Part shown: positions 10,042 to 26,309 of the stretch, in pieces
How the letters are laid out: every line of letters begins with the position of its first letter
Position numbering within the stretch: the stretch's first letter is position 1
Origin: Methanosarcina spelaei
GTDB taxonomy: Archaea; Halobacteriota; Methanosarcinia; Methanosarcinales; Methanosarcinaceae
NCBI RefSeq assembly: GCF_002287235.1
Contig: NZ_LMVP01000346.1
Coordinates: 1 to 33,480 of the forward strand
Length of the DNA stretch: 33,480 bases
Reading direction: 5' to 3'
Position numbers and translations under genes: made by a program
Notes under the pieces: generated by a model
The model's input: the letters and a program-made list of their open reading frames with translations, nothing else
Told to the model about the DNA's origin: nothing
Database searches by the model: none

Positions 10042-10061
10042 CTCCTTTTTAATTTACATCA

Positions 10062-10085
10062 AATATATATTTTAAAATATATATT
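10062..10085. promoter_or_regulatory. 24-bp perfect palindrome in the leader of the methyltransferase operon
   Basis: The sequence AATATATATTTT followed by its exact reverse complement AAAATATATATT spans 10062-10085, 21 to 44 nt upstream of the methyltransferase start. The AT-only composition means it may include the TATA element, but a perfect 12+12 dyad there could equally be an operator or a hairpin at the start of the message. Confidence 0.55.
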
Positions 10086-10233
10086 ATTATGTTTGACTTT
10101 ACAGTCGGATCACCAAAGAATTCGTTTTATGGACATTACTAACAAGGTAAAAGAAATAGTGATCTATTGCCAGCTAAAAGTTTAAATGCCTGTTTTCACG
10201 ATCCTTTTTGCGAGTTTTTTCCGAGTCCCTAAT

Positions 10234-10524
10234 AATATATCCTACTTTCGGCAGGTCGACATAAGGAATTTGAATATTTTTCTTGATATCGTTTTTCAAC
10301 ATTTGATAAATACATATTAGAGTTAAAGCTGGTTAACGTGTGGCTCAACTCCAACGACACATATAAACACTGAATCATTTTTCCATCAAAGTTTAGCATG
10401 AAAGATTATGTTTGGATCATATGTAAACCTAATAACTACTTACAACAAGGGAGCAGTAGTTCAAAATCGCCATCAATAAAATTATAGAAAATGAAATGTC
10501 GACCTGCCGAATATAGGATATATA
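10234..10524. mobile_element. Miniature inverted-repeat element (~290 bp, 29-bp ends)
   Basis: The left end (10234-10262) contains CGGCAGGTCGACAT and the right end (10496-10524) contains ATGTCGACCTGCCG. The full 29-bp ends are inverted complements with about 3 mismatches. The ~230 bp between them has no convincing reading frame and no transposase motif that I can see. Size and structure fit a non-autonomous element mobilised in trans. It sits upstream of the methyltransferase operon and of the pseudogene at 10881, in an intergenic region of 0.8 kb (10042-10880) that otherwise shows only AT-rich sequence. Confidence 0.7.
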
Positions 10525-10880
10525 AGAAAACCATTCTTTTTTATGTAAGAGCCTGCAGCTTTTACATTGTCTATTAATATGGACGTTTGAATACTTAAAC
10601 TGAATACAGTTAGCACAATAAAGAAAAACTTATCTGGAATATATACCGGAAACTTCCTGACTTCCCTTTTAAGAAAAATTTAATCCCTCTATTTTATATC
10701 CATTGACATATAATTTTTATAATATATTCAGGAATTATCTTTTTCGGTCAGGTATGTCAGATATATCAGGTTAGTACAGAGACGAGTTTTTCTGAGACAT
10801 CCGAAACTTCTCGTACTCTGAGAAAAAGATATTCAAGCTACGCTATATTTCCTGATATATATAATTTTTAGGGAGTATGC

Positions 10881-11753
10881 AATGAGCAAATTAGCCTTCT
10901 TTTCACTTACAGTGAGTCTACTTGGCAATTCATGCAGTACAGCTAGCTGTCTCTCATCCTGATTCTGAAGCTCCGGAAGCTGCAGGAAGTACTTGTAGCG
11001 AAACCGAAAACCCGCGTTTAGCTTCATCACAGGATACCGGTCTTGTAAACTCAAATTATTCAGCCTTGATCCAGGCTAAAACAGTTAATATTACAAGCGA
11101 CTACCAAGTTTACCCGGCTTATACTGCGTCTCCGGCCACAGAAGGAAATTATCCGGCTATAGTGCTTATCCACTCCTTTAAAGGGTTCGCCCGGGTATCG
11201 AACTATGGTGAATAAGATGGCAGACGATGGATATGTTGTGATTGCTCCTTTCTGGCAGATACATGATACCTCTCCGTCGGATGCAGAGGTGGAAGCTCTT
11301 ATTAGAAACAGTATAACTTACCTTGAAACGAGGAATGATGTTGATATTGAAAGGATCGGCCTTACCGGCTTTTGTGCCGGTGGCAGGTATACCATGCTTT
11401 CCCTGCCCCAGATTAAGGAGTTTGAATCCGGAGTCGCCTGTTATGGTTTCCCTTATACGGGATGATATGAAATCCAGCCAGACAGGCCGGCCAGTCTGAT
11501 AGACCAGCTTGATGCGCTCATGCTGATGATACACGGAACTCGGGACCAGTATAGCAATATAACTGACATTTACAAATATTCAGGCGAACTGGATACAGTC
11601 AATAAATATTTCGAGCTTTAGGTTTACCAGGTTGAGGTTCACGGTTTCATGATTAAAAAAGAAGAAGAACTTTTTGGAAGTTTTACTGCGAAGAATGCAT
11701 ATGACGGGATTATAAGCTTCTTTGACAGGACATTGAAGAATCCGATTCTGTAA
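10881..11753 (+). pseudogene. Dienelactone hydrolase-family gene, decayed
   Basis: Piecing frames together gives a secreted alpha/beta hydrolase of the dienelactone hydrolase type. It has an ATG at 10881 behind AGGGAG, a hydrophobic leader (MSKLAFFSLTVSLL), then PAIVLIHSFKG (oxyanion strand), DDGYVVIAPFW, the nucleophile elbow GLTGFCAGGRYTM (Cys in the Gly-x-Cys-x-Gly-Gly elbow), LMLMIHGTRDQYSN (acid region) and VEVHGF (catalytic His). Four lesions interrupt it: a frameshift near 10920 within the leader, a frameshift near 11190 (HSFKG to PGYRTM), TGA at 11463-11465, and TAG at ~11620 (FEL-stop-VYQ). It ends at TAA 11751-11753. The multiple independent lesions argue for loss rather than recoding. 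Confidence 0.85.
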
Positions 11754-11917
11754 AACATTAAATTCTCAATCCGGGAACTTGAGAGGATATATCTTTTCAT
11801 TTATTCATTTGATTTTTAAGAAGATACAGGTTTTCTTAAGAATTTGTGCTCATTTCTCCTGCTGTCCAGGGACTTGTTTCTAAAATTTCGCTTTTACTTA
11901 CGGTATTTCTCTATATT

Positions 11918-11994
11918 TATACTTTCTATACTTTCTATACTTTCTATACTTTTTTTATACTTTTTTATACTTTTTTATACTTTTTTTATACTTT
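11918..11994. repeat. TATACTTT microsatellite
   Basis: Imperfect 10-11-bp units of TATACTTTC and TATACTTTTTT are repeated about seven times, on the T-rich strand. This explains the short frames of Phe, Leu, Tyr and Ser that can be read here. It lies downstream of the dienelactone hydrolase pseudogene, within a gene-free stretch (11754-12430). Confidence 0.9.
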
Positions 11995-12062
11995 CCTTTT
12001 CTACACTTCTCTTCTCTTCTCTTATTCATAGTGGCAGAAGAATACGTTAAAAAAATTGAGAA

Positions 12063-12154
12063 TTTAGTGATAAAAATAAGGTAACACCATCTATATTTTA
12101 TAATTTTATAATTTTTTAAATTTTTTAATTAGATGATGATGTTACAGCGCAACA
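12063..12154. repeat. Short inverted-repeat sequence, copy A
   Basis: TTTAGTGATAAAAATAAG, then GTAACACCATC, an AT-only middle, GATGATGTTAC and CAGCGCAACAA. The GTAACAYCA/TGATGTTAC pair forms an inverted repeat. The same flanks and ends recur at 13253-13327, just before the IS630-type transposase remnant, so both may be ends or derivatives of that insertion sequence. Confidence 0.6.
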
Positions 12155-12370
12155 ATGGGGTCCTGTTGCAAAAGTTTTTGTCTCGCACTTTGAAACTATA
12201 ACTAATACCTTTATGTACTATTTTTCCGAGTGATGAGAATTATTAACTTTCCTAATTGAGAGTTTCACTGGTTTTGTAGAATAACCATATCTTTACAACA
12301 GAACCATACTGGATCTCACCATTCATGTGCAGTTTCAAGTTAGCTTTGAATTTTGAACAGATTTTTAAAT

Positions 12371-12430
12371 ATTTCAGTAAACCCCTTAAACCCCTTTTTT
12401 ATTTCAGTAAACCCCTTAAACCCCTTGTTT
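12371..12430. repeat. 30-bp direct repeat, two copies
   Basis: ATTTCAGTAAACCCCTTAAA followed by CCCCTT and a short T-rich tail is repeated at 12371-12400 and 12401-12430, differing at one position in the tail. It abuts the stop codon of the small secreted protein gene, so it lies in that gene's 3' untranslated region. Confidence 0.9.
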
Positions 12431-12787
12431 TTATCTATATTTAGTTGTTTTTGGTAGTTGCTTTATAATTGGTATTTGCTTTATAATTGGTACTGAAATG
12501 TTCCTGGAACTAAGGAACGTAGCAATGTCTGCAGGATCAAAAGATGGGTCAGAACCATTTGTTTGACTCCCTGTTGTATTTCCTGGAGTTGTGTTGTCAG
12601 TAGAACCGTTTATTGAGCTCCACGTTATATTACTCCATGTTATACTTTCAGTTGTTTTGTTCTCAATTGGTGTATCCCATTTCCAGTTTGTGGAGTTAAA
12701 TGCAGCAAACGAAGTCTGTATTGATGCCACAAAAAACAGAACCCCAACAACTAGAGATGTTACTCTTATTCCTTTATATTTACTCAT
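12431..12787 (-). CDS. Small secreted Asn/Thr/Ser-rich protein, function unknown
   Basis: The 118-residue product starts MSKYKGIRV, followed by a hydrophobic signal segment (TSLVVGVLFFVASIQTSFA) with a likely cleavage after SFA. The mature part has at least eight N-x-S/T sequons (NST, NKT, NIT, NGS, NTT twice, NGS, NIS), typical of archaeal cell-surface glycoproteins. The C-terminus carries the duplicated motif VPIIKQIPIIKQ, which comes from a 16-bp tandem duplication in the DNA. GGGAG 8 nt before the ATG at 12787 decides the start; an in-frame ATG at 12802 has no ribosome binding site. I do not recognise a family. The gene is flanked by pseudogenes and repeats, so it could be a relic, though its frame and signals are intact. 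Confidence 0.6.
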   Translation of the reverse strand: MSKYKGIRVTSLVVGVLFFVASIQTSFAAFNSTNWKWDTPIENKTTESITWSNITWSSINGSTDNTTPGNTTGSQTNGSDPSFDPADIATFLSSRNISVPIIKQIPIIKQLPKTTKYR

Positions 12788-13252
12788 ACTTTGAACTCCC
12801 ATATGGTTGGATCATAGTCTAAATCACTTGATTTAGAAGCTAGATGCCTTTCCATTATATTAATAGTCCCACATAATATTATGTTGGCTAATTTGAATAT
12901 TATAGATCAAACTATATAACAAAAACAGAAACATGAGTTCTAATAATAAAATCTCTCTTATTGTAATTAAGTAAGATATAAATTAATTAACTATTATGAA
13001 AATTATTATATATAATAATTAAATAGTCTTAATTGTTAATAGATAGACAAAAAGGACCTCTAATGGGCTAACATGTTTTAAAAACTTATCAAATTAGTTC
13101 TGTTGTAAAAATATCAGAATAAATATGTAACTATATTGATGATGAACAAAGGCCAAATATCAGAGGAAAGCATATATATAATAGGACTTTTCTGGTTGAA
13201 GCATTTTCTACATTTAATATTAAAACACTTTCTTCAAGACTAATTTCCAAAG
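12788..13252. other. AT-rich intergenic region without a gene
   Basis: This very AT-rich sequence, with many TAATTA and TATATA runs, holds the promoter of the small secreted protein gene at its left side. I see no coding frame, RNA gene or strong repeat in it. Confidence 0.6.
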
Positions 13253-13327
13253 CTTAGTGATAAAAATAAGTGTAACATCAAACATAGACCTACATTTACA
13301 ATTTTTAGTGATGTTACGGCACAACAA
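13253..13327. repeat. Short inverted-repeat sequence, copy B
   Basis: CTTAGTGATAAAAATAAG, then TGTAACATCA, ~30 bp of middle sequence, TGATGTTAC and GGCACAACAA. It matches copy A (12063-12154) at both ends. It directly precedes the transposase pseudogene, which suggests that the repeat belongs to the end of that insertion sequence. Confidence 0.6.
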
Positions 13328-13329
13328 CT

Positions 13330-14010
13330 GTATGATTACACTGGTAAAGTCCATCTAGAGTTTGATCACAAAGCAGTCAGTGTCTTAGCTACATATATAG
13401 AGAAGCTAATGAACTAAGTAAGAAATCTAAAAAAGAAAAAACAGGATCAGTAACTATTTCCTACAATGAAGACCAGGTGTTCAAGCAATTGGAAATGTTT
13501 ACCCATATCTAATGCAGGTAGAAGGGCATCACACTACAATACCAAGAAATTCTATATGTAACAAACATAATTATAATGTAATAAATATGAAATTTTTTCG
13601 CTGTTAGCTGAAACTATTTGTTCTCCGGAAAAACCAATTACAGAGTTTTGAAAAATATAAAAGCTGGGAATTCATTCAATTCCTTAACCTGAGTTAATTT
13701 ACCCAAGAGAAAAATCAAAGTTCTGATGATAACTACAAAATTCATACTTCAAGGGAAACTCGAGAATACCTGGAAATTGTTCCTGACAAATTTGAATTTG
13801 TGTTCACACCCAAACATACTTCGTGGATAAATATAATTGAAAGTTTTTTTCAGCAAAATGACAAGAAGCTTATTGAGAGGAATAAGTTGAACCAATAAAA
13901 GAATTAGAGGAAATAATGAGTCAATATATAAACTAAATGAACGAAAAGCCGGTCATTTTTAGGAAATATAAAACTCAAGAAAGGGGCGACGTGCCTGGAA
14001 GAATTATAAT
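13330..14010 (+). pseudogene. IS630-type transposase remnant (DDE domain)
   Basis: The clearest part, around 13725-13850, reads DDNYKIHTSRETREYL, then VPDKFEFVFTPKHTSWINII and ESFF. This is the second half of an IS630-family DDE catalytic domain, with the second Asp (DDN) and the Glu (IIES). An extra T in the T-run at ~13845-13850 shifts the frame, after which SKMTRSLLRGIS and, after further shifts, MNEKPVIFRKYKT complete the family's C-terminus. Upstream, ISYNEDQVFKQ at ~13460 corresponds to the first catalytic Asp region, with Asp changed to Asn. The N-terminal DNA-binding domain is missing. Multiple frameshifts and stops mean it is dead. Confidence 0.85.
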
Positions 14011-14107
14011 CTAAAAGAAAGAGGAATTAATTAGGAGTCAATGCACTAAATTATGAATTGTTATGGAATTGTGTCGTTCCCTTCCAATAAAAATAACTTT
14101 GTTAATG

Positions 14108-14268
14108 ACTAAATGAAATTTCACTAACTGAATGAAATTTCACTAACTGAATGAAATTTCACTAACTGAATGAAATTTCACTGATTTCATCAACTGAATG
14201 AAATTTCACTGATTTCATCAACTGAATGAAATTCCACTGATTTCACCAACTGAATGAAATTTCACTGA
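14108..14268. repeat. Tandem repeat with palindromic core (TGAATGAAATTTCACT)
   Basis: There are seven copies of AACTGAATGAAATTTCACT (19 bp). From the fourth copy onwards a 9-bp GATTTCATC segment is inserted between units, lengthening the period to 28 bp. Each unit contains the palindrome TGAAATTTCA. The array lies just beyond the 3' end of the superoxide dismutase gene and next to the IS630 remnant. There are no unique spacers, so it is not CRISPR. Confidence 0.93.
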
Positions 14269-14395
14269 TCAAACGAAATTTTATCTATTAAACAAAATTT
14301 TCGAATTAAATTGAATATTCCGACCACTTTTCAAATCAAAAAGTAATCGGAAAATTTTATCTTAACGGAATAATATGTAAAAAATAACTTTTTGG

Positions 14396-15007
14396 TTATT
14401 TCCTCATTTTCTTAAAGTATTTGTCGATTTCTTCCCAGTCGACTATATTCCAGAAGGCTTCTATGAATTTTGCCCTGTCATTGCGATAATCAATGTAATA
14501 AGCGTGCTCCCAGGTATCAAGATCCATTATAATCGGATAACCAGGGACCAGATTTACATTATGCTTTTCTATCTGCATGATCATGAGCCTTTCAGTATCT
14601 TTACAATAGGTTAATGCCGCCCATCCTGATCCTTCCACGCTTGATGCTACCTGGGAAAATTCCTTTTTAAACCTGTCAAAGCCTCCGAAATCTTCTTTGA
14701 TTACTTCAGACAATTCCCCTACAGGCTCTTTGCTTGAGTTGCTTTCGGGAGTCATCTCCCACCAGAAATAATCGTGAAGGACATGGCCAGCCAGATTAAA
14801 AGACAGGGCCTTTGCAGTTGCCTTATAATCAAAGTCAGTCCCTTCTTTTCTTGCCTTATCCATCATTTCTATAGCTGCATTTGCGTTAGTCACATAAGCC
14901 TGGTGGTGCTTATCATGATGTAACTTAAGCTGTTCTTCGGAAATATAAGGTGCCAGGTCTCCATATCCATATTTCAAAGGTGGTAATTTGTACAATCCTT
15001 TAGTCAT
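14396..15007 (-). CDS. sod: Superoxide dismutase (Fe/Mn family)
   Basis: It converts superoxide to oxygen and hydrogen peroxide in the cytosol, part of the oxygen defence of an anaerobe. Numbered from MTKGLYKLPP, the four metal ligands are His30 (LKLHHDKHH), His78 (HVLHDYFWW), Asp164 and His168 (DLDTWEHAYY). The structural core GSGWAAL and the dimer signature DTWEHAYYIDY are intact. Archaeal members of this type usually carry iron, but sequence alone does not fix the metal. The chosen ATG at 15007 has GAGTGG upstream; the frame could also begin with GTG three codons earlier (15016). The length of 203 aa is normal. It is monocistronic, and the tandem array at 14108-14268 follows it. Confidence 0.95.
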   Translation of the reverse strand: MTKGLYKLPPLKYGYGDLAPYISEEQLKLHHDKHHQAYVTNANAAIEMMDKARKEGTDFDYKATAKALSFNLAGHVLHDYFWWEMTPESNSSKEPVGELSEVIKEDFGGFDRFKKEFSQVASSVEGSGWAALTYCKDTERLMIMQIEKHNVNLVPGYPIIMDLDTWEHAYYIDYRNDRAKFIEAFWNIVDWEEIDKYFKKMRK

Positions 15008-15533
15008 GTTATCCACTCTTTTTATCGAATTTTTTTAGTTATTTGTTTTGCAAAATCTGTTACGGAATCCGGATTAAATATGAGTCTATGCTTTCCAGTC
15101 AAAAGATCCCATTAAAAACGGTTCCACAACAAATCCTGCCCCTCTAAGCGATTTTCCCCTCAGTTATGTTACAGGAATCTGTTTCAAATTACTTACTCTA
15201 TCGTAACAATTTTATTCCTGAACATTTCTCGCTGTAAAGCACTCTGCTCTGTAAAGCACTCTGCTTTGAGTCTCTTCAAACACATATCGAATCGCATCTG
15301 GCAATTCAAAGTGTAAAATATAATTATCATCAAACCTATTTAAAGGTAAAAGATACAAACTATAGATATTTTTGAAGAAATGTATTCAGGATCTCCAAGA
15401 AAAATTTAACTTCTTAAAATTAGAATAATAAGTAGCAATTAAAATAAAAGTACAGTAGAGGCACTAGCGAAGTTAAAAACTAAATAAAGATTAATTCTGA
15501 TTGAAGAAAAAAACTGGTTGAGGAAGAAAACAA
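15008..15533. other. Divergent intergenic region between sod and the YdjM-type gene
   Basis: About 0.5 kb holding the promoters of two divergent genes. A 17-bp unit CTGTAAAGCACTCTGCT is duplicated in tandem at 15232-15248 and 15249-15265, followed by a degenerate third start. No gene or RNA is visible. Confidence 0.6.
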
Positions 15534-16595
15534 ATGGTAAATTCACTTTCCCACCTGGGAGTCGGCCTTCTGATTGCCCTTACTCTCGGCTTTAAAGGAA
15601 AAAAGCGAAATGCTCTCGGGTTTCTGGCAATCCTTCCTGACCTGGATTTTGTTCCATACGTTATATTTGCCCTTCTTGGGGGCAGCGTAAGCCACGAAAC
15701 TCGAAACCAGCTTTTCTACCTTTTCGGTCACAGGGAGTTCATGCACTCAATCCTTTTCATTCTGCTTGTCACGCTTTTTATCTGGTTTAAAACAAAAGAC
15801 CGCTTATTTACAGCTGCCGGCTTTGCAGCTATATTTTCCCATGTTTATCTTGATTACGCGACAAGCTGGAAAATGCGTCCCCTCTACCCATTGAGCACCG
15901 GAACATCCACTCTCGGAGCCATTTACTTCTTCGACCCGCTGGCAAATATTCTTCCTCTTCTGCCCGTTTTCGTTTTGCTTGCGGCCTACATGAAAGGTCG
16001 CGGAAAATGGAATGGGAAGTTCAATAACTTCTGTGCCTTTGTTACGAAAAACCGGAGTAAACTCTATCCCGCGCTTTTAATCGTGCTTGTGGTCTGGCTT
16101 GCGGTCCTGCCGGTGACAAAACTATTTCTTGTGAATTATATTTCAAGCGCGGAAGGCGCAAAAATCAGCTATGAGGACACCTATCCCTCGTCCATCGGGA
16201 AATTTCTTGCCGCTTATTCTTATAATTCCACACATTACAGGATTATGGAAGTGAGCTACTGGTCAGGGATCGAAAAAAGCGATTATATCGAGAAAATCAA
16301 CGTGACCGGCGAGGTTCCCAATGACTCCGCGTATATTGAAAAAGCCGGAAAACTCTACAGCACAGCCGTTCCTCAGGAAATTGATTATCCTGTTTACAGT
16401 GTTTCGGAAGGAAATGGTTCGGTAACTGTTACGCTGAGCGATGCAAGAGATCAGTATGTTAAATACTGGGCTTATTTCAAAACGGTTTACAGGTTCGTTT
16501 TTGATAAAGAGAGTGGGGAGTATGTGGCTTATGCGAGTGAACAGGAGGGAAGGGAGAAGAAGTTGGAGGAGAATTGGTTTAGGAGGATATCATAA
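15534..16595 (+). CDS. YdjM/DUF457-type membrane-bound metal-dependent hydrolase-like protein
   Basis: The N-terminal ~170 residues match the YdjM (DUF457, 'LexA-binding inner membrane-associated hydrolase') family. It has the opening SLSHLGVGLLIA with a conserved His, the ILPDLDFVPY acidic motif, the GHREFMHSILF histidine motif and SHVYLDYATSW, interleaved with four to five membrane helices. These His/Asp positions suggest a metal site at the membrane face, but no substrate is established for the family. A further helix (residues ~180-205) leads to a ~150-residue C-terminal domain that should lie outside the membrane (many NxS/T and aromatic residues) and is not part of the minimal family. 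GAGG lies ~10 nt upstream of the ATG. It converges on the defence-like gene at 16678. Confidence 0.8.
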   Translation: MVNSLSHLGVGLLIALTLGFKGKKRNALGFLAILPDLDFVPYVIFALLGGSVSHETRNQLFYLFGHREFMHSILFILLVTLFIWFKTKDRLFTAAGFAAIFSHVYLDYATSWKMRPLYPLSTGTSTLGAIYFFDPLANILPLLPVFVLLAAYMKGRGKWNGKFNNFCAFVTKNRSKLYPALLIVLVVWLAVLPVTKLFLVNYISSAEGAKISYEDTYPSSIGKFLAAYSYNSTHYRIMEVSYWSGIEKSDYIEKINVTGEVPNDSAYIEKAGKLYSTAVPQEIDYPVYSVSEGNGSVTVTLSDARDQYVKYWAYFKTVYRFVFDKESGEYVAYASEQEGREKKLEENWFRRIS

Positions 16596-16677
16596 AGTGA
16601 TTTCTTTAAATTCAATGAAATGGAACATGATTCTTATGGGCTTAGTGCTATAACTAGTGGCTTTTAAATCTTATATT

Positions 16678-19632
16678 TTATTTTTCAGACAATTTTTTGT
16701 AGTTCCAAAACCATGGTAGATCTTTTGCGGTAAACTTTGGACATTTTTCTATAGATGATACTGCGCCCAATTTCTGCGCTTTTCTCCAAAATTCTTGAAC
16801 AACATGATCAAATTTATTAATCATTTCTGGATAATATTCTAATATTCCAATTAACATATAGTTAATATTTTTACTGTAACATATTCTACTATCAGAATAT
16901 ACACCAGGAGGTAGTATGTTTATCAGTTGATTAAATATACTAGATAGTGAAGTACTTAAAACTCCTAAGGCTTTTAAACATATTTCATTTTTTGGTTTTC
17001 GACCTTCCAATAAATTAAATATCAGTGGATGTCGAGCATTGAAAATTACCTCTTCAGTATCAAAAGCATATGGAATATGGACGAAAAAAGGTGTTCCATT
17101 GTTGCCATTATTAACCATTCCATATGTTAAAAACATACCTTGAATCCAGAAGACTCCTTTTTCTTCAGAATTGTTTGAGTTGATTTCGATCACAACACCT
17201 GGAATTGATGTTATTAATATGTGTTTGGGATTACCTAGTATTCCTTCAAAAAAATCTTTTTTGACAAGATTTTCATCTCCGTCAAATAATAAAAGTGGGC
17301 ATTCTATAGTGGCTTCGTTCTTAAATTCTTCAAATATTCTTTTGTCAGATATTTTGTCTGGCCAATCATTGACACCTGTTATTCCAATAAATGGTAATGT
17401 CTCTAAATCATGTACAAATTTATAGGTCTTTTTACCATTAGCGGATAAAAATGGAAGAGGAACATTTTCAAGAAATATTTTCTTAATCTGTTGATTAATT
17501 GGCCTCGGGTTAATTGAGTATTTGTTTCTCCCAGGATTTAAAATTTCTAGTTTTAGTATTTCATCAACATATTTTAGGTACTTTTCTACTGAATTTGAAT
17601 TTCTATATGTTTTTAAGTGTTTATCAAGCTCTTCTATATATTTTAAGTTAATTAAATTTGCGATTCTTGAGTATTTTTTATCTTTAACTACCATCTGTCT
17701 ACTAGGGCTGAGGGTTAACTTCTCTTGGCCTGATAGATTAATTGATACGTCTAAATTGTCAGATATCCAATCGGGAAAGAGACCTTCAGAAGGTATTGAA
17801 AATCCCCTTTGTGCAATGATTCTGCAATTATCGTTAGAATAATACCTGCCCGAAACAACATTTATCCGACCCTCTATACCTTCCAAATTATCATTTTCTC
17901 CAAAAAGTATTTCAAAATACTTTTTTGCCTTCTTTCCTGTTGAAGGAATTTCCCCAGGTAATAGTGGTCTATATGTTTGTGTTCTTTCGATAGTATGAAC
18001 TTTAATAGAATATTCAATGAACGGGGCTATTTCCGAGATTTTCTCCATTAATGTCTCAGCAGAAAATGGATGATTGGGTTTTAAGTATAGAGTTATTTTT
18101 GTTCCATACTTCGAACGCTTAGATTGCTTTTTTATAAAATAATCATAAGCCGTTGGAATCTCAAAATATATTGGTTTAGATGGATTAAGTTCGTCTTCAA
18201 ACGTTTTCCTTCTGCTCTCAACAGTAAATTTATTGGCAACCATAAAAACTGATAAAATACCTATTCCAAATTCACTTATAGGATCCACGTTTACATTTTT
18301 TTGTCGAAAATCTAAACTCTGGTAGTAACTTCTGCCCACTTTCATGAAGTAATTCTCAAATATTTTTTCATCCATACCAATGCCATTATCTTCAACAATT
18401 AGTTCATCCTTTATTAAAGAAACTTCTATAGAGGGGTTGTATCCATTTCCTTCTCTTTTTTCCAGAGATTCTCTATAACGTACAGCATCTACAGAGTTCT
18501 GCAAAAGCTCTCGAAGTGCTACAATTGGATCTCCATAGAGTCCTTCTCCCATCAGTAAATCAAGGACTCTACAGTAATCAAGTTCAAAATGGAAATCACA
18601 ATATTCATAACCAATAGAATGAATCTCTGCATCAACAGGCTCAGAAAGTTTAAGTGTATACTTTTCCTCAAAATTGTCTCTGTAACTTGAAACTAACTGA
18701 TAACTATCTTCTATTTCCTTATCGATTTCTTTTATGAACTTTCTAAGTGTTCGTTCCTGTTCTGGATGTTTACAATCAGCTACAATTTTTATCTTTTCAG
18801 GTGTAATCGGAAATCCGGTTATACAGAGATGTTTATTCCACTCTTTGATGCTAATTTCATCTTTTGGATTTAGGTAGTAGAATAAATGTTTCGGAGTTCT
18901 TTCGGGATCGATATCCAATTTATCAGCTAGTCGAAATATTACAGCTAAATACTGAACGTTAACTGGTTTATCTAGTACAAAAGTATTATTTGGCCAAGAT
19001 TGAGTATTATACAAATCTTTCACTGGGAGCTCATGACTGTCACATACCGCCATTACCCAGTTACAGTATGGAATGCCTTTCCATGAAATTTCAGAGTCCA
19101 ATTCATATTCTTCGATTATTTTGTGTGCATGTTGAACATGATTTTTTCGAAGAAAATCAGTAAACGCTTTGTTTTCCATATTAAGCGCGACTTCATAATC
19201 ACTATTGTTTTTCGCTTCCTCGAACTTTTCGTATAATTCTTCGTTTGAGGTTAAATGTTTTTTAAATTCACTAGTTTTAACTATTTGCTTCCGATCATCA
19301 GAAGATGCGATCATTCCTATATCATGAAGATAGGCAGCGTAAATAAGTATGGAAATTTCAATAGAATTTAATTGTTTGAGAGTCTCACAAGGAATTATTT
19401 TTTCTATATTTTCAATTACATGAACACTATGATTAGCATTATGCAATGTGAACTCAGGCATATTTTCCGGAATTCTTTCTAGTAAAGGAGCAGCCTTGCG
19501 AACAACTGAAATTATATTTTGTGAAATTTCATGATCTACTAATGAAGTCTTTTCTATTTCTTCATTCTCTTTTTCAAAAAGTTTCTTAAACAGACCTGTT
19601 TGTTGTAATCTCAGAATCGCATCTTCAGACAT
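16678..19632 (-). CDS. HD domain fused to Hsp90-like GHKL ATPase (putative defence protein)
   Basis: This 984-residue cytosolic protein has an N-terminal HD-type phosphohydrolase domain: HNANHSVHV with His68, the HD doublet His103-Asp104 in YLHDIGM, and the distal RLADKLDID at ~234-241. It is followed from ~355 by a GHKL/Hsp90-type ATPase with the N-box ALRELLQNSVDAVRY (Glu375, Asn379), DNGIGM (415-420) and EFGIG (454-458). The remaining ~500 residues look like the Hsp90 middle-domain fold plus a tail I cannot assign. HD domains in such fusions usually hydrolyse nucleotides or nucleic-acid phosphoesters. GGAG lies 8 nt upstream. The gene is AT-rich compared with its neighbours and shares its leader sequence (19651-19797) with the ATPase/DUF4435 operon. 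I infer an antiviral or abortive-infection role; none is proven. Confidence 0.8.
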   Translation of the reverse strand: MSEDAILRLQQTGLFKKLFEKENEEIEKTSLVDHEISQNIISVVRKAAPLLERIPENMPEFTLHNANHSVHVIENIEKIIPCETLKQLNSIEISILIYAAYLHDIGMIASSDDRKQIVKTSEFKKHLTSNEELYEKFEEAKNNSDYEVALNMENKAFTDFLRKNHVQHAHKIIEEYELDSEISWKGIPYCNWVMAVCDSHELPVKDLYNTQSWPNNTFVLDKPVNVQYLAVIFRLADKLDIDPERTPKHLFYYLNPKDEISIKEWNKHLCITGFPITPEKIKIVADCKHPEQERTLRKFIKEIDKEIEDSYQLVSSYRDNFEEKYTLKLSEPVDAEIHSIGYEYCDFHFELDYCRVLDLLMGEGLYGDPIVALRELLQNSVDAVRYRESLEKREGNGYNPSIEVSLIKDELIVEDNGIGMDEKIFENYFMKVGRSYYQSLDFRQKNVNVDPISEFGIGILSVFMVANKFTVESRRKTFEDELNPSKPIYFEIPTAYDYFIKKQSKRSKYGTKITLYLKPNHPFSAETLMEKISEIAPFIEYSIKVHTIERTQTYRPLLPGEIPSTGKKAKKYFEILFGENDNLEGIEGRINVVSGRYYSNDNCRIIAQRGFSIPSEGLFPDWISDNLDVSINLSGQEKLTLSPSRQMVVKDKKYSRIANLINLKYIEELDKHLKTYRNSNSVEKYLKYVDEILKLEILNPGRNKYSINPRPINQQIKKIFLENVPLPFLSANGKKTYKFVHDLETLPFIGITGVNDWPDKISDKRIFEEFKNEATIECPLLLFDGDENLVKKDFFEGILGNPKHILITSIPGVVIEINSNNSEEKGVFWIQGMFLTYGMVNNGNNGTPFFVHIPYAFDTEEVIFNARHPLIFNLLEGRKPKNEICLKALGVLSTSLSSIFNQLINILPPGVYSDSRICYSKNINYMLIGILEYYPEMINKFDHVVQEFWRKAQKLGAVSSIEKCPKFTAKDLPWFWNYKKLSEK

Positions 19633-19650
19633 TTATTTGCTCCTTTACTA

Positions 19651-19797
19651 CTTGCAAACCCTTTTAACGTATGACCTGATTAATTTTTTGTTTTTATTTT
19701 TTGTGTATTCGTTAAATACTTTCACTTCTTTTCGGTCTTAGCCGCCTGCTTCGCAGTCGTATGGTACCCCGTTTTAAGATTCATTGGAACTCAAAAC
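19651..19797. repeat. Shared leader repeat, copy 1 (upstream of the HD-GHKL gene)
   Basis: About 145 bp starting CTTGCAAACCCTTTTAA and containing TTCGGTCTTAGCCGCCTGCT, a CTGCTTCGCAG hairpin, TATGGTACC and CGTTTTAAG aligns along its whole length with 22266-22408. It lies 19 nt upstream of the start codon of the 984-residue gene, in promoter/leader position. The remaining 170 bp to the next gene (up to 19970) show nothing further. Confidence 0.8.
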
Positions 19798-19970
19798 GGC
19801 GTTGTGTAAGAGTCTGTCTAAAATTAGTTCCCATAACTTCTTTACCTTTGCCAGTCTCATTCGGTAGCATTCTCCAGGCACAACAAGGACGTAACAAATA
19901 GAAGATAGTATTCGATATTTCTCATAAGAAAAAGAATCTTGATGTTAAAAATAAGTTGTAAATCTGAAAT

Positions 19971-20843
19971 TCATAAGTTCGGATTTAAGGTAATTTGATC
20001 ATTTTCTGTTTCCCATCTTTTTATTGAATCATATAACTCTGTATTAACAAAATCTGAGGAATTATAAGCTTCTATTAATTTCGATTCAATGATATCATGA
20101 AGTTGTTGTTGATTTAATTTTTTGCAATCGCAAATGCCGAATATATATTGAAGCCCCAAAATTAATATTTTAATCATATCATGACCTCTACAGACCTGCC
20201 ATTTGTCATGTGCTATATCAAAGGCTTCGTTCAGTTTGTTTTTTAGAGTTTGTGCATCGTACCGGAAATTTCCGTTTTTGCCCAGTATTTCAAAAATGAA
20301 GTTGTTCAAATTAAATTCTAAGTTCTCATTGTCAACAAATTTTTTAAAATCTAATTCATTGAAACTTAGAGGAAATCCTTTTTGAGATATCCATAACAGA
20401 TATCCGATCCAAACCGAACTTTCTAATAAGGTTTCTCTTAAATCTTTACTGTTTTTTTCAAAAAAAGCTTTCAACCTTTCTTCATTTGCATACTCACTCA
20501 TGGCATAATCAAGAGCTTTTGTCTTTATCATCATGGTTTCAATATCGTGAGTATCTGTGACCAAAATGTCAGAATTCAAACTTTGGCCATCAAGCCGATA
20601 AAAATCAGAATCTACAATACCAAAAACTTTTAAAGCCGGGTTTCTTTCTTTAATCATTGGAATTGCTTTAATTACTTTTTGTTTTCCTGTAGCATCTTTT
20701 ATATGGCAATGTTTAGTGTCCACAAACTTATCGAAAAGGACCTTATCTGTTCTCCCTTCAACCAAAACAACTGCTCCTTTGCGATATTTTTTATTCATAC
20801 AAATTTCATTTGCAATTGCTTCGGCTTTTATTTTATCTCTCAC
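19971..20843 (-). CDS. DUF4435 TOPRIM-like nuclease, AriB-like (PARIS effector candidate)
   Basis: This is a 290-residue protein with the DUF4435 pattern, a TOPRIM-like metal-dependent nuclease fold. It has Glu29 in VVLVEGRTDKVLF, the Asp-x-Asp pair Asp78/Asp80 in FGIVDSDF, and TDTHDIETMM (Asp100, Glu102), with the family's C-terminal GHDMIKIL at 220-227. In the PARIS system AriB is a DUF4435 protein released by its ATPase partner AriA to act as toxic nuclease on host tRNA after a phage anti-restriction protein is sensed; the position of the first Glu is close to that of E. coli AriB. Translation starts with GTG at 20843, overlapping the ATPase stop by 4 nt (GTGA), so the pair is translationally coupled. 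Other DUF4435 defence pairs cannot be excluded. Confidence 0.8.
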   Translation of the reverse strand: MRDKIKAEAIANEICMNKKYRKGAVVLVEGRTDKVLFDKFVDTKHCHIKDATGKQKVIKAIPMIKERNPALKVFGIVDSDFYRLDGQSLNSDILVTDTHDIETMMIKTKALDYAMSEYANEERLKAFFEKNSKDLRETLLESSVWIGYLLWISQKGFPLSFNELDFKKFVDNENLEFNLNNFIFEILGKNGNFRYDAQTLKNKLNEAFDIAHDKWQVCRGHDMIKILILGLQYIFGICDCKKLNQQQLHDIIESKLIEAYNSSDFVNTELYDSIKRWETENDQITLNPNL

Positions 20844-22225
20844 TGACCTTCACCTTCTTCAAGGTCAACTGTTAAATCCCAACGATCATCAATAATTTGA
20901 GGTGAATGTGTCGCAACAATAATGTTTAGTTTATTAAGTTCTGCAATTCTCAGTAAATTCTTGATTATTTCTTCTTGCCACATTATGTGCAATGAGATTT
21001 CAGGCTCGTCTATTAGAATTATTGAATTCTCTTCGGTTTTGAACAGCAATTCGTAGTTTATTATAACTTCGTGTTGCTCACCAGAAGATAATTTTTCAGG
21101 GGTCAAAACTTTACCATTCTTGAATTTAAAAACGAAACCTTTGCTTTTTTTAACTTCAATTGACTTATTTGAAAATTGTTTATTAATTATTTCTTTAAAT
21201 AAGCTCATTTTTCTTGCCAAATCATCAAACACAGATAATTTTGCTTCGGTATCTTCAATATAAAGTGTAAGGACTCTTCTTCTTTCACTTGTCATATTTT
21301 CTTGAGGTAATTCATTGGATTCTCTGGACTCTAAAATACCTAATTCCATAAGATTTTTATTTTTGGTCTCTATTTCTTGAATCCTTTCGTAAATTGCTTT
21401 CTCATCGAGTATCTCAACAGCATCCGAACCTGCATTTTGAATTAATCTGTGGGGAAACGTACTATCGAGCTTCTGAGATATACTTGCATATTCCGAATTT
21501 TTATTTTCTATTCTTTTTACAAGATCCGTAGAATATTCGAGAACTACTTGAACCGGTACAACTTTTTTCCTGTTTGGATCATGTTCTTGATAATCTGTTT
21601 GAGAATCGTATTTCATCAGTCTTTGAGATTCTATCAAATGGACTTTTATTTCCTTCAACTCATCTTTTAATTTATAATAATCAGGCAAATTGGAATAAGA
21701 AGGAGGAAAGCGATATCCATAAATTTTAATTAAATCTGAAATCTCCAGTATGTCTCCTGTTTTCAAATCTTTCCATTTATTAAACTCAACTCTTTCGATT
21801 TGCATATTTATTTCTATAAATTTCAAAATATTCCCAAATTCAAAATCATCTTTTGAGTATTTATCCGGAGTTAGATTATATTCCTCAGTTTTTCCACCTG
21901 ATTTAGTTACATTACATTTCACAAGCTCATATGGAATCTCATCATTGCTGCAAAGAATTAGTTGTTTTATAATTTCAATGCTGGAGATTTCTTCAATGTC
22001 CTCTAATGACTCTTTATTTTCAAATTCGATTTTAAATACATTAAATGGTATTTTTCTAATATATTCAATGTCAACATCTATTGTTGCTTTAATAAGTTTA
22101 AAAATAGTTGTTTTCCCATAACCATTTGGGGCAATTATTATAGTTACTCTTTCATCCGTATTTAGAGGAATATTATAATTATATACATCAAATAAGCCTT
22201 CTATCGAAATCTGTTTTAATCTCAT
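20840..22225 (-). CDS. ABC-type ATPase, AriA-like (PARIS sensor candidate)
   Basis: This is a 461-residue ATPase of the AAA_15/OLD-like ABC class. Walker A is APNGYGKTT at 32-40, then comes a long helical insert (~150-370, with coiled-coil stretches around residues 210-300). The signature LSSGEQHEV is at ~379-386, Walker B IILIDEPEISLH at ~402-413 and the H-loop IVATHSPQII at ~436-445. Such ATPases dimerise head-to-tail and act as sensor or switch for a linked nuclease. The immediately coupled partner is a DUF4435 TOPRIM-like protein, which is the AriA-AriB (PARIS) architecture. GAGGT 8 nt upstream supports the ATG at 22225. The leader repeats the sequence found upstream of the 984-residue HD-GHKL gene. 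AT-rich and probably acquired. Confidence 0.85.
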   Translation of the reverse strand: MRLKQISIEGLFDVYNYNIPLNTDERVTIIIAPNGYGKTTIFKLIKATIDVDIEYIRKIPFNVFKIEFENKESLEDIEEISSIEIIKQLILCSNDEIPYELVKCNVTKSGGKTEEYNLTPDKYSKDDFEFGNILKFIEINMQIERVEFNKWKDLKTGDILEISDLIKIYGYRFPPSYSNLPDYYKLKDELKEIKVHLIESQRLMKYDSQTDYQEHDPNRKKVVPVQVVLEYSTDLVKRIENKNSEYASISQKLDSTFPHRLIQNAGSDAVEILDEKAIYERIQEIETKNKNLMELGILESRESNELPQENMTSERRRVLTLYIEDTEAKLSVFDDLARKMSLFKEIINKQFSNKSIEVKKSKGFVFKFKNGKVLTPEKLSSGEQHEVIINYELLFKTEENSIILIDEPEISLHIMWQEEIIKNLLRIAELNKLNIIVATHSPQIIDDRWDLTVDLEEGEGQ

Positions 22226-22265
22226 GATTTACCTCAATAAGTGTTGACATAAAATAAATTGTTAC

Positions 22266-22408
22266 TTGCTAATCCTTTTTAATCATTACCTTATTAGTTT
22301 TTTGTTTTAATTTATGAATGTTAATTTAATGCTTTCACTTTTTTCGGTTTTCGCCGCCTGCTTTGCAGTCTTATGGTACCTCGTTTTAAGGTCCATCGAA
22401 ACTCAAAT
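22266..22408. repeat. Shared leader repeat, copy 2 (upstream of the AriA-like gene)
   Basis: This matches copy 1 (19651-19797) from CTTGCTAATCC through GCCGCCTGCTTTGCAGTC, TATGGTACC, CGTTTTAAG and GAAACTCAAA, at roughly 80% by eye. It lies 40 nt upstream of the ATPase start. Downstream bases to ~22460 also resemble a third, weaker copy near 23192-23260. Confidence 0.8.
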
Positions 22409-22584
22409 CTACCCTGAATTCAGAAATTTTTCAAATTATGATTAAGGCGTGGTTCACTCAAAAAATCAATTCAAAAATCCGCAAAAAACAGGTTGAGGAA
22501 CAGTAACTGACTGAAATTTAGCGTAAAATAGAATGAACAGCTATGAAAAAAAAAGTGAAAGGTAAATGGCAAAACAAAGCCATT

Positions 22585-22902
22585 TTATTGATTTACTATA
22601 ACAAATCTTTGTTGCATAACTGTAGGTTCCAGTATCTCCGGAGGGTGAGAGAATCTCACGCTATGGAAAATAATCTTGCCTTCACCTTTCTTGACTGCAA
22701 GAAACTTGAACTTGCTAATTCCTCCACTTCCTGGTTTAATAGGTTCATCGGGTACATACGTTGATTCTACAAAGTAAACACAGTGTGGCATCTCTGACAG
22801 TAAGCAGTTGTAGCCGGTCGAAGCAGGATTTGACGGTATTGATATTTCAAATATATCTCCAACTTTTGCATTAATTGGCGGTAATATCTTTAATTCTTGC
22901 AT
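22585..22902 (-). CDS. Chagasin-family (I42) cysteine protease inhibitor
   Basis: This is a 105-residue protein with the three loops that chagasin-type inhibitors insert into papain-like proteases: the NPxTGY-type loop as NPASTGYNC (25-33), the GxGG loop as PGSGGISKF (57-65), and the RxW-type loop region as SVRFSHPPEI (81-90), where Trp is replaced. The beta-sandwich core (KVGDIFEISI at the start, KGEGKIIFHS near the end) is intact. No signal peptide is visible, so it would be cytosolic unless the start is mis-set; GGGGGT ~9 nt before the ATG supports the start used. Many archaeal relatives are secreted, so a cytosolic target would be unusual. It lies just upstream of the defence-like genes but has its own promoter region. 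Confidence 0.85.
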   Translation of the reverse strand: MQELKILPPINAKVGDIFEISIPSNPASTGYNCLLSEMPHCVYFVESTYVPDEPIKPGSGGISKFKFLAVKKGEGKIIFHSVRFSHPPEILEPTVMQQRFVIVNQ

Positions 22903-23444
22903 TATTTTATACCCCCTTTATGTTAACTCGTTCACCATTGTTCGGGAAATTATTATTTATATAGACACTTTGGACAATTTATCAAGGTGATTGAGTTATA
23001 AGTTATAATGTTGGTCCATGTATATACAACTTCCTAATGTTCTTTATTATCAATTATCTGTTATATTATTGTGCAGATTAATGTTTGACATCTCTAGTGA
23101 GAAAATCGCTAAAAAAGCGGTATAAGCCAATTACGGAGATAATTGATCTCGAATCATCCATAACAGTTACTCTTTATTCTTTCTATGAGTTCACTGCTGT
23201 ATAGCACTTGTTTTTAAGAAGAATCAAAACTCAAATTGACCCTGAATAGTGAAAATTCTAAAAACTACACCTTCCGGTACTCAATCTTTTAAAAAAACCT
23301 ATTCAAAAAGCTGCACTCTGAAAAATAAGTCCACCCGTCCGACTTCCTCCAAAAAAAGCCCGCCACCGGAAACCAATCCCAAAAAATCTTTATTCCGGCA
23401 GCAGTTTGAGTGAAGAACTATTTTTCTTCACCCGCGTATGTTAT
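22903..23444. other. Intergenic region with a degenerate third copy of the leader repeat
   Basis: The region lies between the gyrA 3' end and the chagasin-type gene. Bases ~23192-23260 (ACTGCTGTATAGCA, GTTTTTAAG, AAAACTCAAATTGACCCTGA) resemble the right half of the repeat at 22357-22436, including the position of the small hairpin. The rest is AT-rich and holds the chagasin promoter. No gene or RNA seen. Confidence 0.5.
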
Positions 23445-26309
23445 TCAATCTTCTTCAATATCTTTTTCGTCTTCGTCCTCTTCTTCTGCTTCATCATCTT
23501 CTTTTGCTTCATCATCTTCTAATTCTTCGGTTTCTTCGTCTTCGTCGATAATTTCAAAGTCTTCTGATTCGGCAAACTCATCGAGTTCCTCACCTTCGTC
23601 CTCTGAAACCTCGGCTCCTTCTCCGGCTCCAATTGTTTCTACGGCTTCTTTACCTTCGAAGGCTGTAAGTTTCAGGTTCTGTTCAGCTTTTCCGTTTTCG
23701 ATCCTGGCTATACCTGCAACTATGTCGCCAGGTTTCATATTCATGATTCTTACACCCTGAGTGTTTCTGCCCTGGATCGAGATATCTTTCGCAGGGATGC
23801 GGATAATAATACCATCGGCACTGGTGAAGATAAGTTCATCGTCATCGGCTACGGATCTGACTCTTGAGACAGGGCCGTTCCTCTCGTTGGTAATGATTGT
23901 TATCACGCCTTTTCCGCCACGGCGGTGCGCAGGGTACTGAGAGTACTCTGTTCTCTTGCCAAAGCCGTTTTCGGTAACGGTCAGGAGGGTTGTGGTCTCG
24001 TCAACAATGTCCATACTGACAACTTCATCATCCGGGCCGTCAAGGGTCATACCACGGACACCCCTTGCGGTTCTGCCCATGTGGCGGACGTCTTTCTCAG
24101 GGAAGCGGATAGCTTTGCCTTTCTTTGAAACCATCAGGACTTCTTTTTTGCCGTCTGTAAGGAGAACTCTTACAAGCTCGTCATCCTTATCCAGGGTGAC
24201 TGCAATTATGCCTGCTTTCCTCGGATTTTTGAATTCCGAGAGAGGAGTCTTTTTGATCGTTCCTGCCCTTGTTGCCATAAGCAGGTAGTGGTTTTCGTCA
24301 AATTCCTTGACCGGGATCATGGCATTAATTGTTTCGCCTTCCTGAAGCTCCAGAAGGTTTACTATGGCTTTACCTCTGGATTGCCGGGAGCCTTCAGGGA
24401 TCTCATAGACTTTTTCCCAGTAGAGCCTGCCAAGGTTTGTGAAGAAAAGGATATAGTTATGGGTTGAGGAAATGAAGAGATTTTCCACGAAGTCTTCCTC
24501 CTTCATCTCCATACCGATTATACCCCTGCCTCCACGGCGCTGCATGGTGTAAGTCGTGAGCGGGATGCGTTTTATGTAGCCTCCATTAGTAATCGTGACA
24601 ACAACTTCCTCTTCGTGAATCAGATCCTCTTCTCTGACATCAGAAGCCGCCTGCACGATTTTTGTCCTGCGGGCATCCCCATATTTTTCCTTGAGCTCCA
24701 GAAGTTCATTCCTGATTATCTCGTACTTGAGCTCATCGCTCTCAAGGATCTTATTAAGTTCCTCGATCAGCTTTACAAGGCCTTCCAGCTCTTCAAGAAT
24801 CTTCTGGGTTTCAAGCCCTGTCAGGCGCTGCAGGCGCATGTCAAGGATAGCCTTAGACTGGAGCTCGTCAAGGGCAAAATTCTCCATCAATCCTTGCTTG
24901 GCTTCATCAGCATTTGCTGAGCCCTTTATCAGAGCGACTACCTCGTCTATTTTATCCAGGGCAATCCTGAGCCCTTCAAGGATATGGGCTCTATCCTCGC
25001 TCTTCTTGAGGTCATAAAGCGTCCGCTTCTGGATAATTTCCATCCTGTATTCCAGGTAGATCTCAAGAAGCTCCTTCAGGTTGAGCTCTTTTGTTTTTCC
25101 GTTCACAAGGGCCAGGTTGATTATCCCAAAGCTTGTCTCCATTTGCGTGTGCTTGTAGAGCTGGTTTAAAATAACTTTAGGGTTCGTGCCCCGGGAAAGC
25201 TCGATAACAACCCTGATTCCATCCCTGTCTGACTCGTCCCGAAGATCGGAAATTCCGACAATTATCTTTTCCCTGGCGAGCTGGGCAATGTTTTCAATCA
25301 TTCGGGCTTTATTCACCTGATAGGGAAGTTCTGTTACGATAATCTGCTGCCTGTCCTTCTTTAACTCCTGGATTTCGGCAACTGCCCGGATCTTTACAGG
25401 GCCCCTTCCGGTCATATACGCAGACTTTATGCCTGCTGTCCCAAGGATATGGGCGCCTGTCGGAAAATCAGGACCCTTGATTACAGTCATGAGTTCCGGA
25501 ACTGTCGTCTCCGGATTTTCGATAAGCATGAGGGTCCCGTCAATTACCTCGCCTATGTTATGGGGGGCCATGTTTGTTGCCATTCCCACTGCAATACCTT
25601 GGGACCCGTTGATCAGAAGGTTCGGAAGTTTTGCAGGGAGGACTTCGGGCTCTTCCATTGACCCGTCATAATTTGGCATGAAGGGAACAGTTTCCTTCTC
25701 GATGTCTGCCAGCATCTCCTCTGAGATTCTGTCCATGCGGACTTCGGTGTAACGCATGGCAGCAGCCGAATCTCCATCAATCGACCCGAAATTTCCCTGT
25801 CCGTCAATTAAAGGATAACGAAGTGAGAAAGTCTGGACCATACGCACAATACTGTCATAAACGGCAGTGTCTCCGTGCGGATGGTATTTACCAAGCACAT
25901 CTCCCACAACACGGGCTGACTTCTTGTAGGCCTTGTCATGCGTAATCCCTGCTTCTTTCATTGCAAAAAGGATTCTACGGTGAACCGGTTTTAAGCCGTC
26001 CCGGGCATCTGGAAGTGCCCTTCCGACGATTACGCTCATTGCATAGTTGATGTAAGAGCGTTTCATCTCATTTTCGATAAGGACGGTAGTAACCCCACTC
26101 CTTTCTGGCTCCGGACCTTCATCCTCCGGCTCATCTGAAGCAGGATCAGACACGCTTAATTCCAGTTTTTTGCCCGGTTCTTCGTGTGTAAAGGCGGCTG
26201 AACCGTCCCCATTTTCCGGTTCTCCATCGTTCTCTTCGGGGATAAGGGTAGCCTGATAAGATTTTTTCAATTCATCTTCTGATTTATTCTCGTCTTCGTA
26301 TTTTGCCAT
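23445..26309 (-). CDS. gyrA: DNA gyrase subunit A
   Basis: The breakage-reunion subunit of gyrase introduces negative supercoils with GyrB. The active tyrosine is Tyr187 in AMRYTEVRM. The quinolone-region helix reads [12 protein letters not shown], with Thr148 and Asp152 at the E. coli Ser83/Asp87 positions. The GyrA-box QRRGGRG, the hallmark that separates gyrase from Topo IV, is present in [13 protein letters not shown], followed by a six-bladed pinwheel domain. Unusual are ~65-70 extra N-terminal residues, highly acidic ([21 protein letters not shown]), before the conserved start of the catalytic core, and a ~60-residue Glu/Asp tail. GAGGTGG upstream supports the start. It follows gyrB by 11 bp in one operon. 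Gyrase in Methanosarcinales is known to be of bacterial origin. Confidence 0.97.

What the first reader, a model, noticed from the sequence alone, without database searches (positions are those of the whole stretch)
16678..19632. HD phosphohydrolase fused to an Hsp90-type ATPase in one 984-residue chain
Both active sites look intact (His68, His103-Asp104; Glu375/Asn379, DNGIGM, EFGIG). The combination couples an ATP-driven conformational clamp to a probable phosphoesterase, a logic typical of conflict systems. The ~300 C-terminal residues cannot be assigned and may hold the sensing part.
Basis: partly seen in the sequence, partly recalled or inferred. Interest (0 to 1): 0.6.

Follow-up and report, generated by a model that had tools for sequence, protein, structure and literature searches.

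The report
HD enzyme fused to Hsp90 clamp
A methanogenic archaeon carries one long protein that joins a metal-dependent phosphate-cutting enzyme to an Hsp90-like ATP-driven clamp; it belongs to a widespread, still untested family of predicted antiviral proteins, so the gene is real and interesting but its kind has been described before.

Summary
Residues 58-308 are Pfam HD-CE (E=2.4e-51), with a complete set of putative metal ligands (H68, H103-D104, H165, H200, D237) plus an invariant H64. Residues 346-557 are an Hsp90 N-terminal ATPase domain. The C-terminal part called unassignable is mostly Hsp90 middle domain: profile-profile comparison aligns residues 348-692 with HtpG (E=1e-29), placing R645 on HtpG Arg336 (catalytic arginine), and Foldseek on residues 526-984 returns Hsp90 middle/middle-C structures. 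The last ~130 residues resemble an Hsp90 C domain only loosely.
The architecture is common (386 related stretches in reference genomes; best 79 loci span many phyla), patchy within Methanosarcina (8 of 31 genomes), and has no obligatory partner gene. The adjacent PARIS pair is a separate cassette in the same variable gyrA-ydjM site.
Best reading: a single-gene, ATP-gated conflict effector in which client binding and clamp closure switch on a phosphohydrolase, probably nucleotide-directed. Gating, substrate and antiviral role are inferred. From memory, Nicastro et al. (NAR 2023) described HD-CE effectors and HSP90-coupled systems; that paper was not readable here. Novelty: new member of a known kind.

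The parts
16678..19632 (-). whole ORF, 984 aa, ATG start with a GGAG ribosome site just upstream; HD-CE + Hsp90-like clamp
   Evidence: start region and ribosome site conserved in nine Methanosarcinaceae copies
18709..19461 (-). HD-CE domain (residues 58-308) with H64, H68, H103-D104, H165, H200, D237, R162, R245, H268 conserved
   Evidence: Pfam PF24391 E=2.4e-51; conservation; weak profile similarity to class I cyclic-nucleotide phosphodiesterases
17962..18597 (-). Hsp90 N-terminal GHKL ATPase domain (residues 346-557): E375/N379, DNGIGM, EFGIG, GT510-511
17083..17961 (-). Hsp90 middle domain (about residues 558-850); R645 (codon 17698-17700) aligns with HtpG Arg336, the catalytic arginine
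   Evidence: hhalign to HtpG over residues 348-692, E=1e-29; Foldseek, Hsp90 middle domain; boundaries approximate
16681..17082 (-). C-terminal part (about residues 851-984), ends in a DLPWFWN motif shared by most of the long subfamily; possibly equivalent to the Hsp90 C-terminal dimerisation domain
   Evidence: alignment A4; only loose structural similarity to Hsp90 middle-C structures
19649..19800 (-). leader repeat copy 1, directly upstream of the gene
   Evidence: only two copies in this genome, both at this site

Best explanation
A single-gene, ATP-gated conflict (probably antiviral) effector. The Hsp90-like part (N + middle, perhaps a C domain) forms a dimeric clamp that recognises a trigger, such as a viral or stress-altered protein, as an Hsp90 client. 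ATP-driven clamp closure then repositions the two N-terminal HD-CE domains and switches on a metal-dependent phosphohydrolase of phosphodiesterase type, which destroys a nucleotide or nucleotide derivative and stops growth of the infected cell. Shown by sequence and model: domain order, intact catalytic residues in both ATPase and HD parts, Hsp90 middle domain with catalytic Arg, absence of an obligatory partner gene, patchy distribution. Inferred: dimerisation, gating, substrate, trigger and antiviral role.
For: HD-CE match far above cut-off; ligand set nearly invariant in 95 aligned rows. Hsp90 N + M by profile, E=1e-29, R645 on HtpG Arg336; AlphaFold model pLDDT 88 with Hsp90/TRAP1/HtpG as best PDB matches; C-terminal model matches Hsp90 middle domain. 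Ten of ten scanned relatives carry HD-CE + HATPase. No shared neighbour family in more than 7 of 92 loci. Patchy in Methanosarcina, in a variable chromosomal site, next to PARIS. Relatives sit beside restriction, Shedu, integrase and conjugation genes and on viral contigs. Precedent: VcSduA, a GHKL ATPase fused to a nuclease, gives phage defence in V. cholerae (PMC12137116). Precedent for HD-domain nucleotide depletion as defence: Clover (PMC12265719).
Against: No functional test of any member was found. Substrate unknown; the closest solved relatives of the HD part are phosphodiesterases, at weak significance (E about 0.001), so a signalling role is possible. Defence-gene enrichment near relatives was not tested against a control set. 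Dimerisation through the C-terminal part is not demonstrated.
Confidence: 0.6

Rival explanations
1. A GHKL clamp acting on nucleic acid (MORC/MutL-like) rather than on protein clients, with the HD domain acting as a nuclease (Cas3-HD-like), i.e. a restriction-type system.
For: GHKL ATPases in defence are known to work with nucleases (VcSduA); weak REase_II PADLOC and restriction-enzyme NCBIfam hits to the ATPase part; SMC/OLD-type ATPase genes directly upstream in about 11 relatives.
Against: The ATPase and middle domains match Hsp90/HtpG far better than MORC or gyrase; the HD profile points to cyclic-nucleotide phosphodiesterases, not Cas3 HD.
Confidence: 0.17
2. A regulatory protein: an Hsp90-like stress chaperone whose HD domain degrades a signalling nucleotide, with no role in conflict.
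For: Phosphodiesterase-like H-x3-H...HD motif; at a conserved chromosomal position in most Methanosarcina copies; no HSP90 family match elsewhere in this genome.
Against: Patchy presence (8 of 31 genus genomes); a tree mixing archaea, Acidobacteriota, Bacillota and Bacteroidota in one clade; variable neighbourhoods.
Confidence: 0.15
3. A third component of the adjacent PARIS (AriA-AriB) system.
For: Same strand, 338 bp downstream of AriB in the window and 336 bp in a 96% identical copy.
Against: The other seven Methanosarcinaceae copies lack AriA/AriB in the stretches fetched around them; one genome (L145) has AriA-AriB at the same site without it; PARIS sits between two copies of a repeat, like an inserted cassette.
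Confidence: 0.03

Closest known systems
HD-CE effectors and HSP90-coupled conflict systems (Nicastro et al., NAR 2023, gkad879; Pfam PF24391)
   Same: HD-CE domain by Pfam; HSP90-type ATPase in the same chain; predicted nucleotide-targeting immune effector (the paper's content is recalled from memory; only its citation was verified).
   Different: Paper not readable here, so I cannot say whether this archaeal long subfamily, with an Hsp90 middle domain and catalytic Arg, was described.
HtpG / Hsp90 / TRAP1
   Same: N-terminal GHKL ATPase with all motifs, and middle domain with catalytic arginine.
   Different: Fused N-terminal HD-CE domain; below the HtpG-type equivalog cut-offs (94 vs 455 and 80 vs 371 bits); C-terminal domain divergent.
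VcSduA (Shedu with N-terminal GHKL ATPase, PMC12137116)
   Same: GHKL ATPase joined to a catalytic effector in one chain; experimentally anti-phage.
   Different: Effector is a PD-(D/E)xK nuclease at the C-terminus, not an N-terminal HD domain.
Clover CloA (HD dNTPase, PMC12265719)
   Same: HD-domain nucleotide-depleting defence effector.
   Different: Regulated by nucleotide signals and a partner NTase, not by an Hsp90 clamp; not compared with HD-CE by sequence here.
Class I cyclic-nucleotide phosphodiesterases
   Same: H-x3-H...HD arrangement; best, weak, PDB profile match of the HD part.
   Different: Extra conserved H165/H200, no detectable similarity over the rest of the domain; substrate untested.

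Membership tests
HD-CE (PF24391) | score above the curated cut-off over the whole domain | tested here: met
   175.4 bits vs 27, profile positions 1-262 of 263
HD-CE (PF24391) | conserved His/Asp metal-ligand set (active rather than inactive form) | tested here: met
   H68, H103, D104, H165, H200, D237 all present and conserved in 91-93 of 95 rows
HD-CE (PF24391) | nucleotide hydrolysis | not testable with these tools
   needs biochemistry
Hsp90 | N-terminal GHKL ATPase with Bergerat-fold motifs | tested here: met
Hsp90 | middle domain with catalytic arginine | tested here: met
   hhalign aligns R645 with HtpG R336; Foldseek; but no Pfam HSP90 (PF00183) match at E<0.1
Hsp90 | C-terminal dimerisation domain | tested here: inconclusive
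   only loose match to Hsp90 middle-C structures; profile alignment ends at residue 692
Hsp90 | ATP-driven clamp closure on clients | not testable with these tools
   needs biochemistry
HtpG equivalog | NCBIfam equivalog score | tested here: not met
   94 bits vs 455, and 80 vs 371
PARIS | AriA AAA ATPase and AriB DUF4435 as the system's components | tested here: not met
   they are separate neighbouring genes; HD-Hsp90 occurs without them and they occur without it
HSP90-coupled nucleotide-targeting effector class (Nicastro et al. 2023) | nucleotide-targeting effector domain coupled to an HSP90-related module | tested here: met
   architecture as above; class definition recalled from memory, paper not held
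HSP90-coupled nucleotide-targeting effector class (Nicastro et al. 2023) | immune function | not testable with these tools
   no experiment on any member found

The most novel reading that the evidence does not exclude
A self-contained archaeal immune sensor in which a near-complete Hsp90 clamp, in a genome with no other HSP90 match, recognises a viral protein as its client and, on closing, allosterically activates a covalently attached phosphodiesterase-type HD enzyme. Hsp90 client recognition would then itself be the pathogen sensor.
Probability: 0.3. Interest if true: 0.75.

Novelty: new member of a known kind. Interest (0 to 1): 0.4.

Why it matters
If the mechanism holds, Hsp90, usually a general chaperone, would be used as an immune sensor-switch, comparable to STAND ATPases. 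This archaeal genome shows no other HSP90 match, so a viral client could be recognised without a background of ordinary Hsp90 work. The family is widespread and appears to be single-gene, hence easy to test.

Tried and rejected
Three-gene PARIS + HD-Hsp90 system: rejected by presence-absence. Conserved partner gene: none in 92 loci, apart from recurrent but diverse upstream SMC/OLD/AAA_13 ATPases in about 11 short-type loci. Viral scan with the single protein found nothing; the alignment scan found nine loci, three of them clear. Profile of the C-terminal part alone against PDB sequences: nothing meaningful; hhalign of that part alone was weak (probability 9, E=0.0035); resolved only with the full-family profile and with structure. 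Literature search for 'HD-CE' returned unrelated papers; the NAR 2023 paper is not held. Rfam and tRNA scans of the window were empty. A control for defence-gene enrichment near relatives was not run.

Full report
What is there. The ORF at 16678-19632 is on the minus strand and encodes 984 aa. Pfam assigns residues 58-308 to HD-CE (E=2.4e-51) and residues 371-476 to HATPase_c_3; NCBIfam HtpG-type models cover residues 349-557. The genome is an assembly of 5.09 Mb in 559 contigs; the nearest copies carry the name Methanosarcina in public records.

Active sites. In an alignment of 95 rows, H64 and H68 are conserved in 92 and 91 rows, H103 and D104 in 92, H165, H200 and D237 in 93, R162 and R245 in 93; most exceptions are gaps. 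On the ATPase side E375 and N379 are in 95 of 95, D415, G417 and G419 in 95, G456 and G458 in 94. Caveat: most loci were found with patterns around AYLHDIGM and RELLQNSVD, so conservation of those stretches is partly built in; H64, H68, H165, H200, D237, R245, DNGIGM and EFGIG were not in the patterns. By profile, the HD part is closest, though weakly (E about 0.001), to class I cyclic-nucleotide phosphodiesterases through the shared H-x3-H...HD segment. By analogy with those enzymes (established knowledge), H64 would be the catalytic acid and H68/H103/D104/D237 metal ligands; this is inference.

The 'unassignable' C-terminus. AlphaFold2 with a 67-sequence alignment gives pLDDT 88. Foldseek of the whole model returns Hsp90/TRAP1/HtpG (best E=2.3e-17). 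A separate model of residues 526-984 returns Hsp90 again, including isolated middle domains (1usv, E=4e-4; 1hk7) and middle-C structures. Profile-profile comparison with four HtpG proteins gives E=1e-29 over residues 348-692, with R645 in LTLSPSR aligned to R336 in LPLNISR of HtpG; the family profile also aligns with Hsc82/Hsp82 across N and middle domains. R336 of HtpG is the catalytic arginine by established knowledge. The last ~130 residues, ending in DLPWFWN in most of the long subfamily, are only loosely comparable to the Hsp90 C domain; I leave that inconclusive.

Family. A genome scan gave 386 related stretches; the best 79 loci span archaea, Acidobacteriota, Bacillota, Bacteroidota, Pseudomonadota and others; ten representatives all show HD-CE + HATPase. 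The tree puts the window copy in a long (~1000 aa) clade with Acidobacteriota, Paenibacillus, Bacteroidota and Melainabacteria (SH-aLRT 99, quick tree), while most others form a short (~810 aa) clade: horizontal transfer between domains is the simplest reading. Within the genus, 8 of 31 genomes have a near-full-length copy.

Neighbours. No neighbour family recurs in more than 7 of 92 loci, so the gene appears to work alone. Neighbours of relatives include OLD/SMC/AAA_15 ATPases, integrases, recombinases, conjugation and restriction genes. About eleven short-type loci have an SMC/OLD/AAA_13 ATPase gene abutting upstream. In the window AriA (PADLOC E=8e-28) and AriB (E=7e-25) lie upstream, but the presence-absence pattern separates them.

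The site. gyrA-(chagasin-like I42)-[variable cargo]-ydjM-sod recurs across Methanosarcina with different cargo: HD-Hsp90, PARIS, AAA_14/DUF4143 ATPase, TPR or pentapeptide proteins. A ~150-nt leader repeat lies directly upstream of most HD-Hsp90 copies and upstream of AriA; it occurs only twice in this genome, both here, and flanks the PARIS pair as direct repeats. The DUF4143 cargo is likewise flanked in L143 and L035. This suggests cassette exchange by recombination at the repeat; inference.

Mechanism. Hsp90 is an ATP-driven dimeric clamp (established knowledge); fusing an effector to it gives a plausible switch. I think the protein is an ATP-gated conflict effector (confidence 0.6). Steps shown: domains, catalytic residues, middle-domain arginine, solitary genetics. 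Steps inferred: dimer, gating, substrate, trigger, defence. Rivals are a nucleic-acid clamp with nuclease activity, a signalling phosphodiesterase, and a PARIS accessory (nearly excluded).

Known or new. HD-CE is a named Pfam family, and from memory Nicastro et al. (NAR 2023) named HD-CE and described systems using HSP90-related modules with nucleotide-targeting effectors. Its citation is confirmed in held papers but its text was not readable. I therefore rate this a new member of a known kind, with added anatomy: an Hsp90 N-middle clamp with its catalytic Arg, in an archaeal genome without another HSP90 match.

Noticed in passing
window 19971-22225, minus strand: A PARIS-like pair: AriA-type AAA_15 ATPase (461 aa) overlapping AriB-type DUF4435 TOPRIM protein (290 aa). 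Present without HD-Hsp90 at the same site in L145.
   Followed up: partly
window 19649-19800 and 22263-22407, minus strand: Two copies (80% identical) of a ~150-nt leader repeat flank the PARIS pair as direct repeats; no other copy found in the genome, but copies at the gyrA-ydjM site in most Methanosarcina genomes. It contains an inverted repeat (CCGTTTT...AAAACGG).
   Followed up: partly
window 14396-26309 and loci L029-L036, L140-L157: gyrA to ydjM/sod is a variable cargo site in Methanosarcina (HD-Hsp90, PARIS, AAA_14/DUF4143 ATPase, TPR, pentapeptide proteins).
   Followed up: partly
L104 (Clostridium uliginosum) 9893-21389: Three different HD-CE + HATPase genes in a row (809, 874 and 1298 aa), from distant branches of the family.
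   Followed up: no
L045 (Aliarcobacter butzleri plasmid) 9902-12723: The HD-Hsp90 protein is split into two adjacent ORFs (404 and 520 aa), near a Shedu gene.
   Followed up: no
L075, L082, L087, L091, L094, L095, L098, L105, L107, L117, L119: SMC/OLD/AAA_13-type ATPase genes directly abut the short-type HD-Hsp90 gene upstream; different ATPase families on several branches, suggesting repeated pairing.
   Followed up: partly
L032/L024 (G103): One Methanosarcina copy appears frameshifted near residue 880, splitting off the last ~100 residues.
   Followed up: no
L129, L130, L131: HD-Hsp90 relatives on IMG/VR viral contigs; the L130 protein looks the same as the one on a Domibacillus contig (L124: same length, score and alignment), so it may be prophage-borne.
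   Followed up: no
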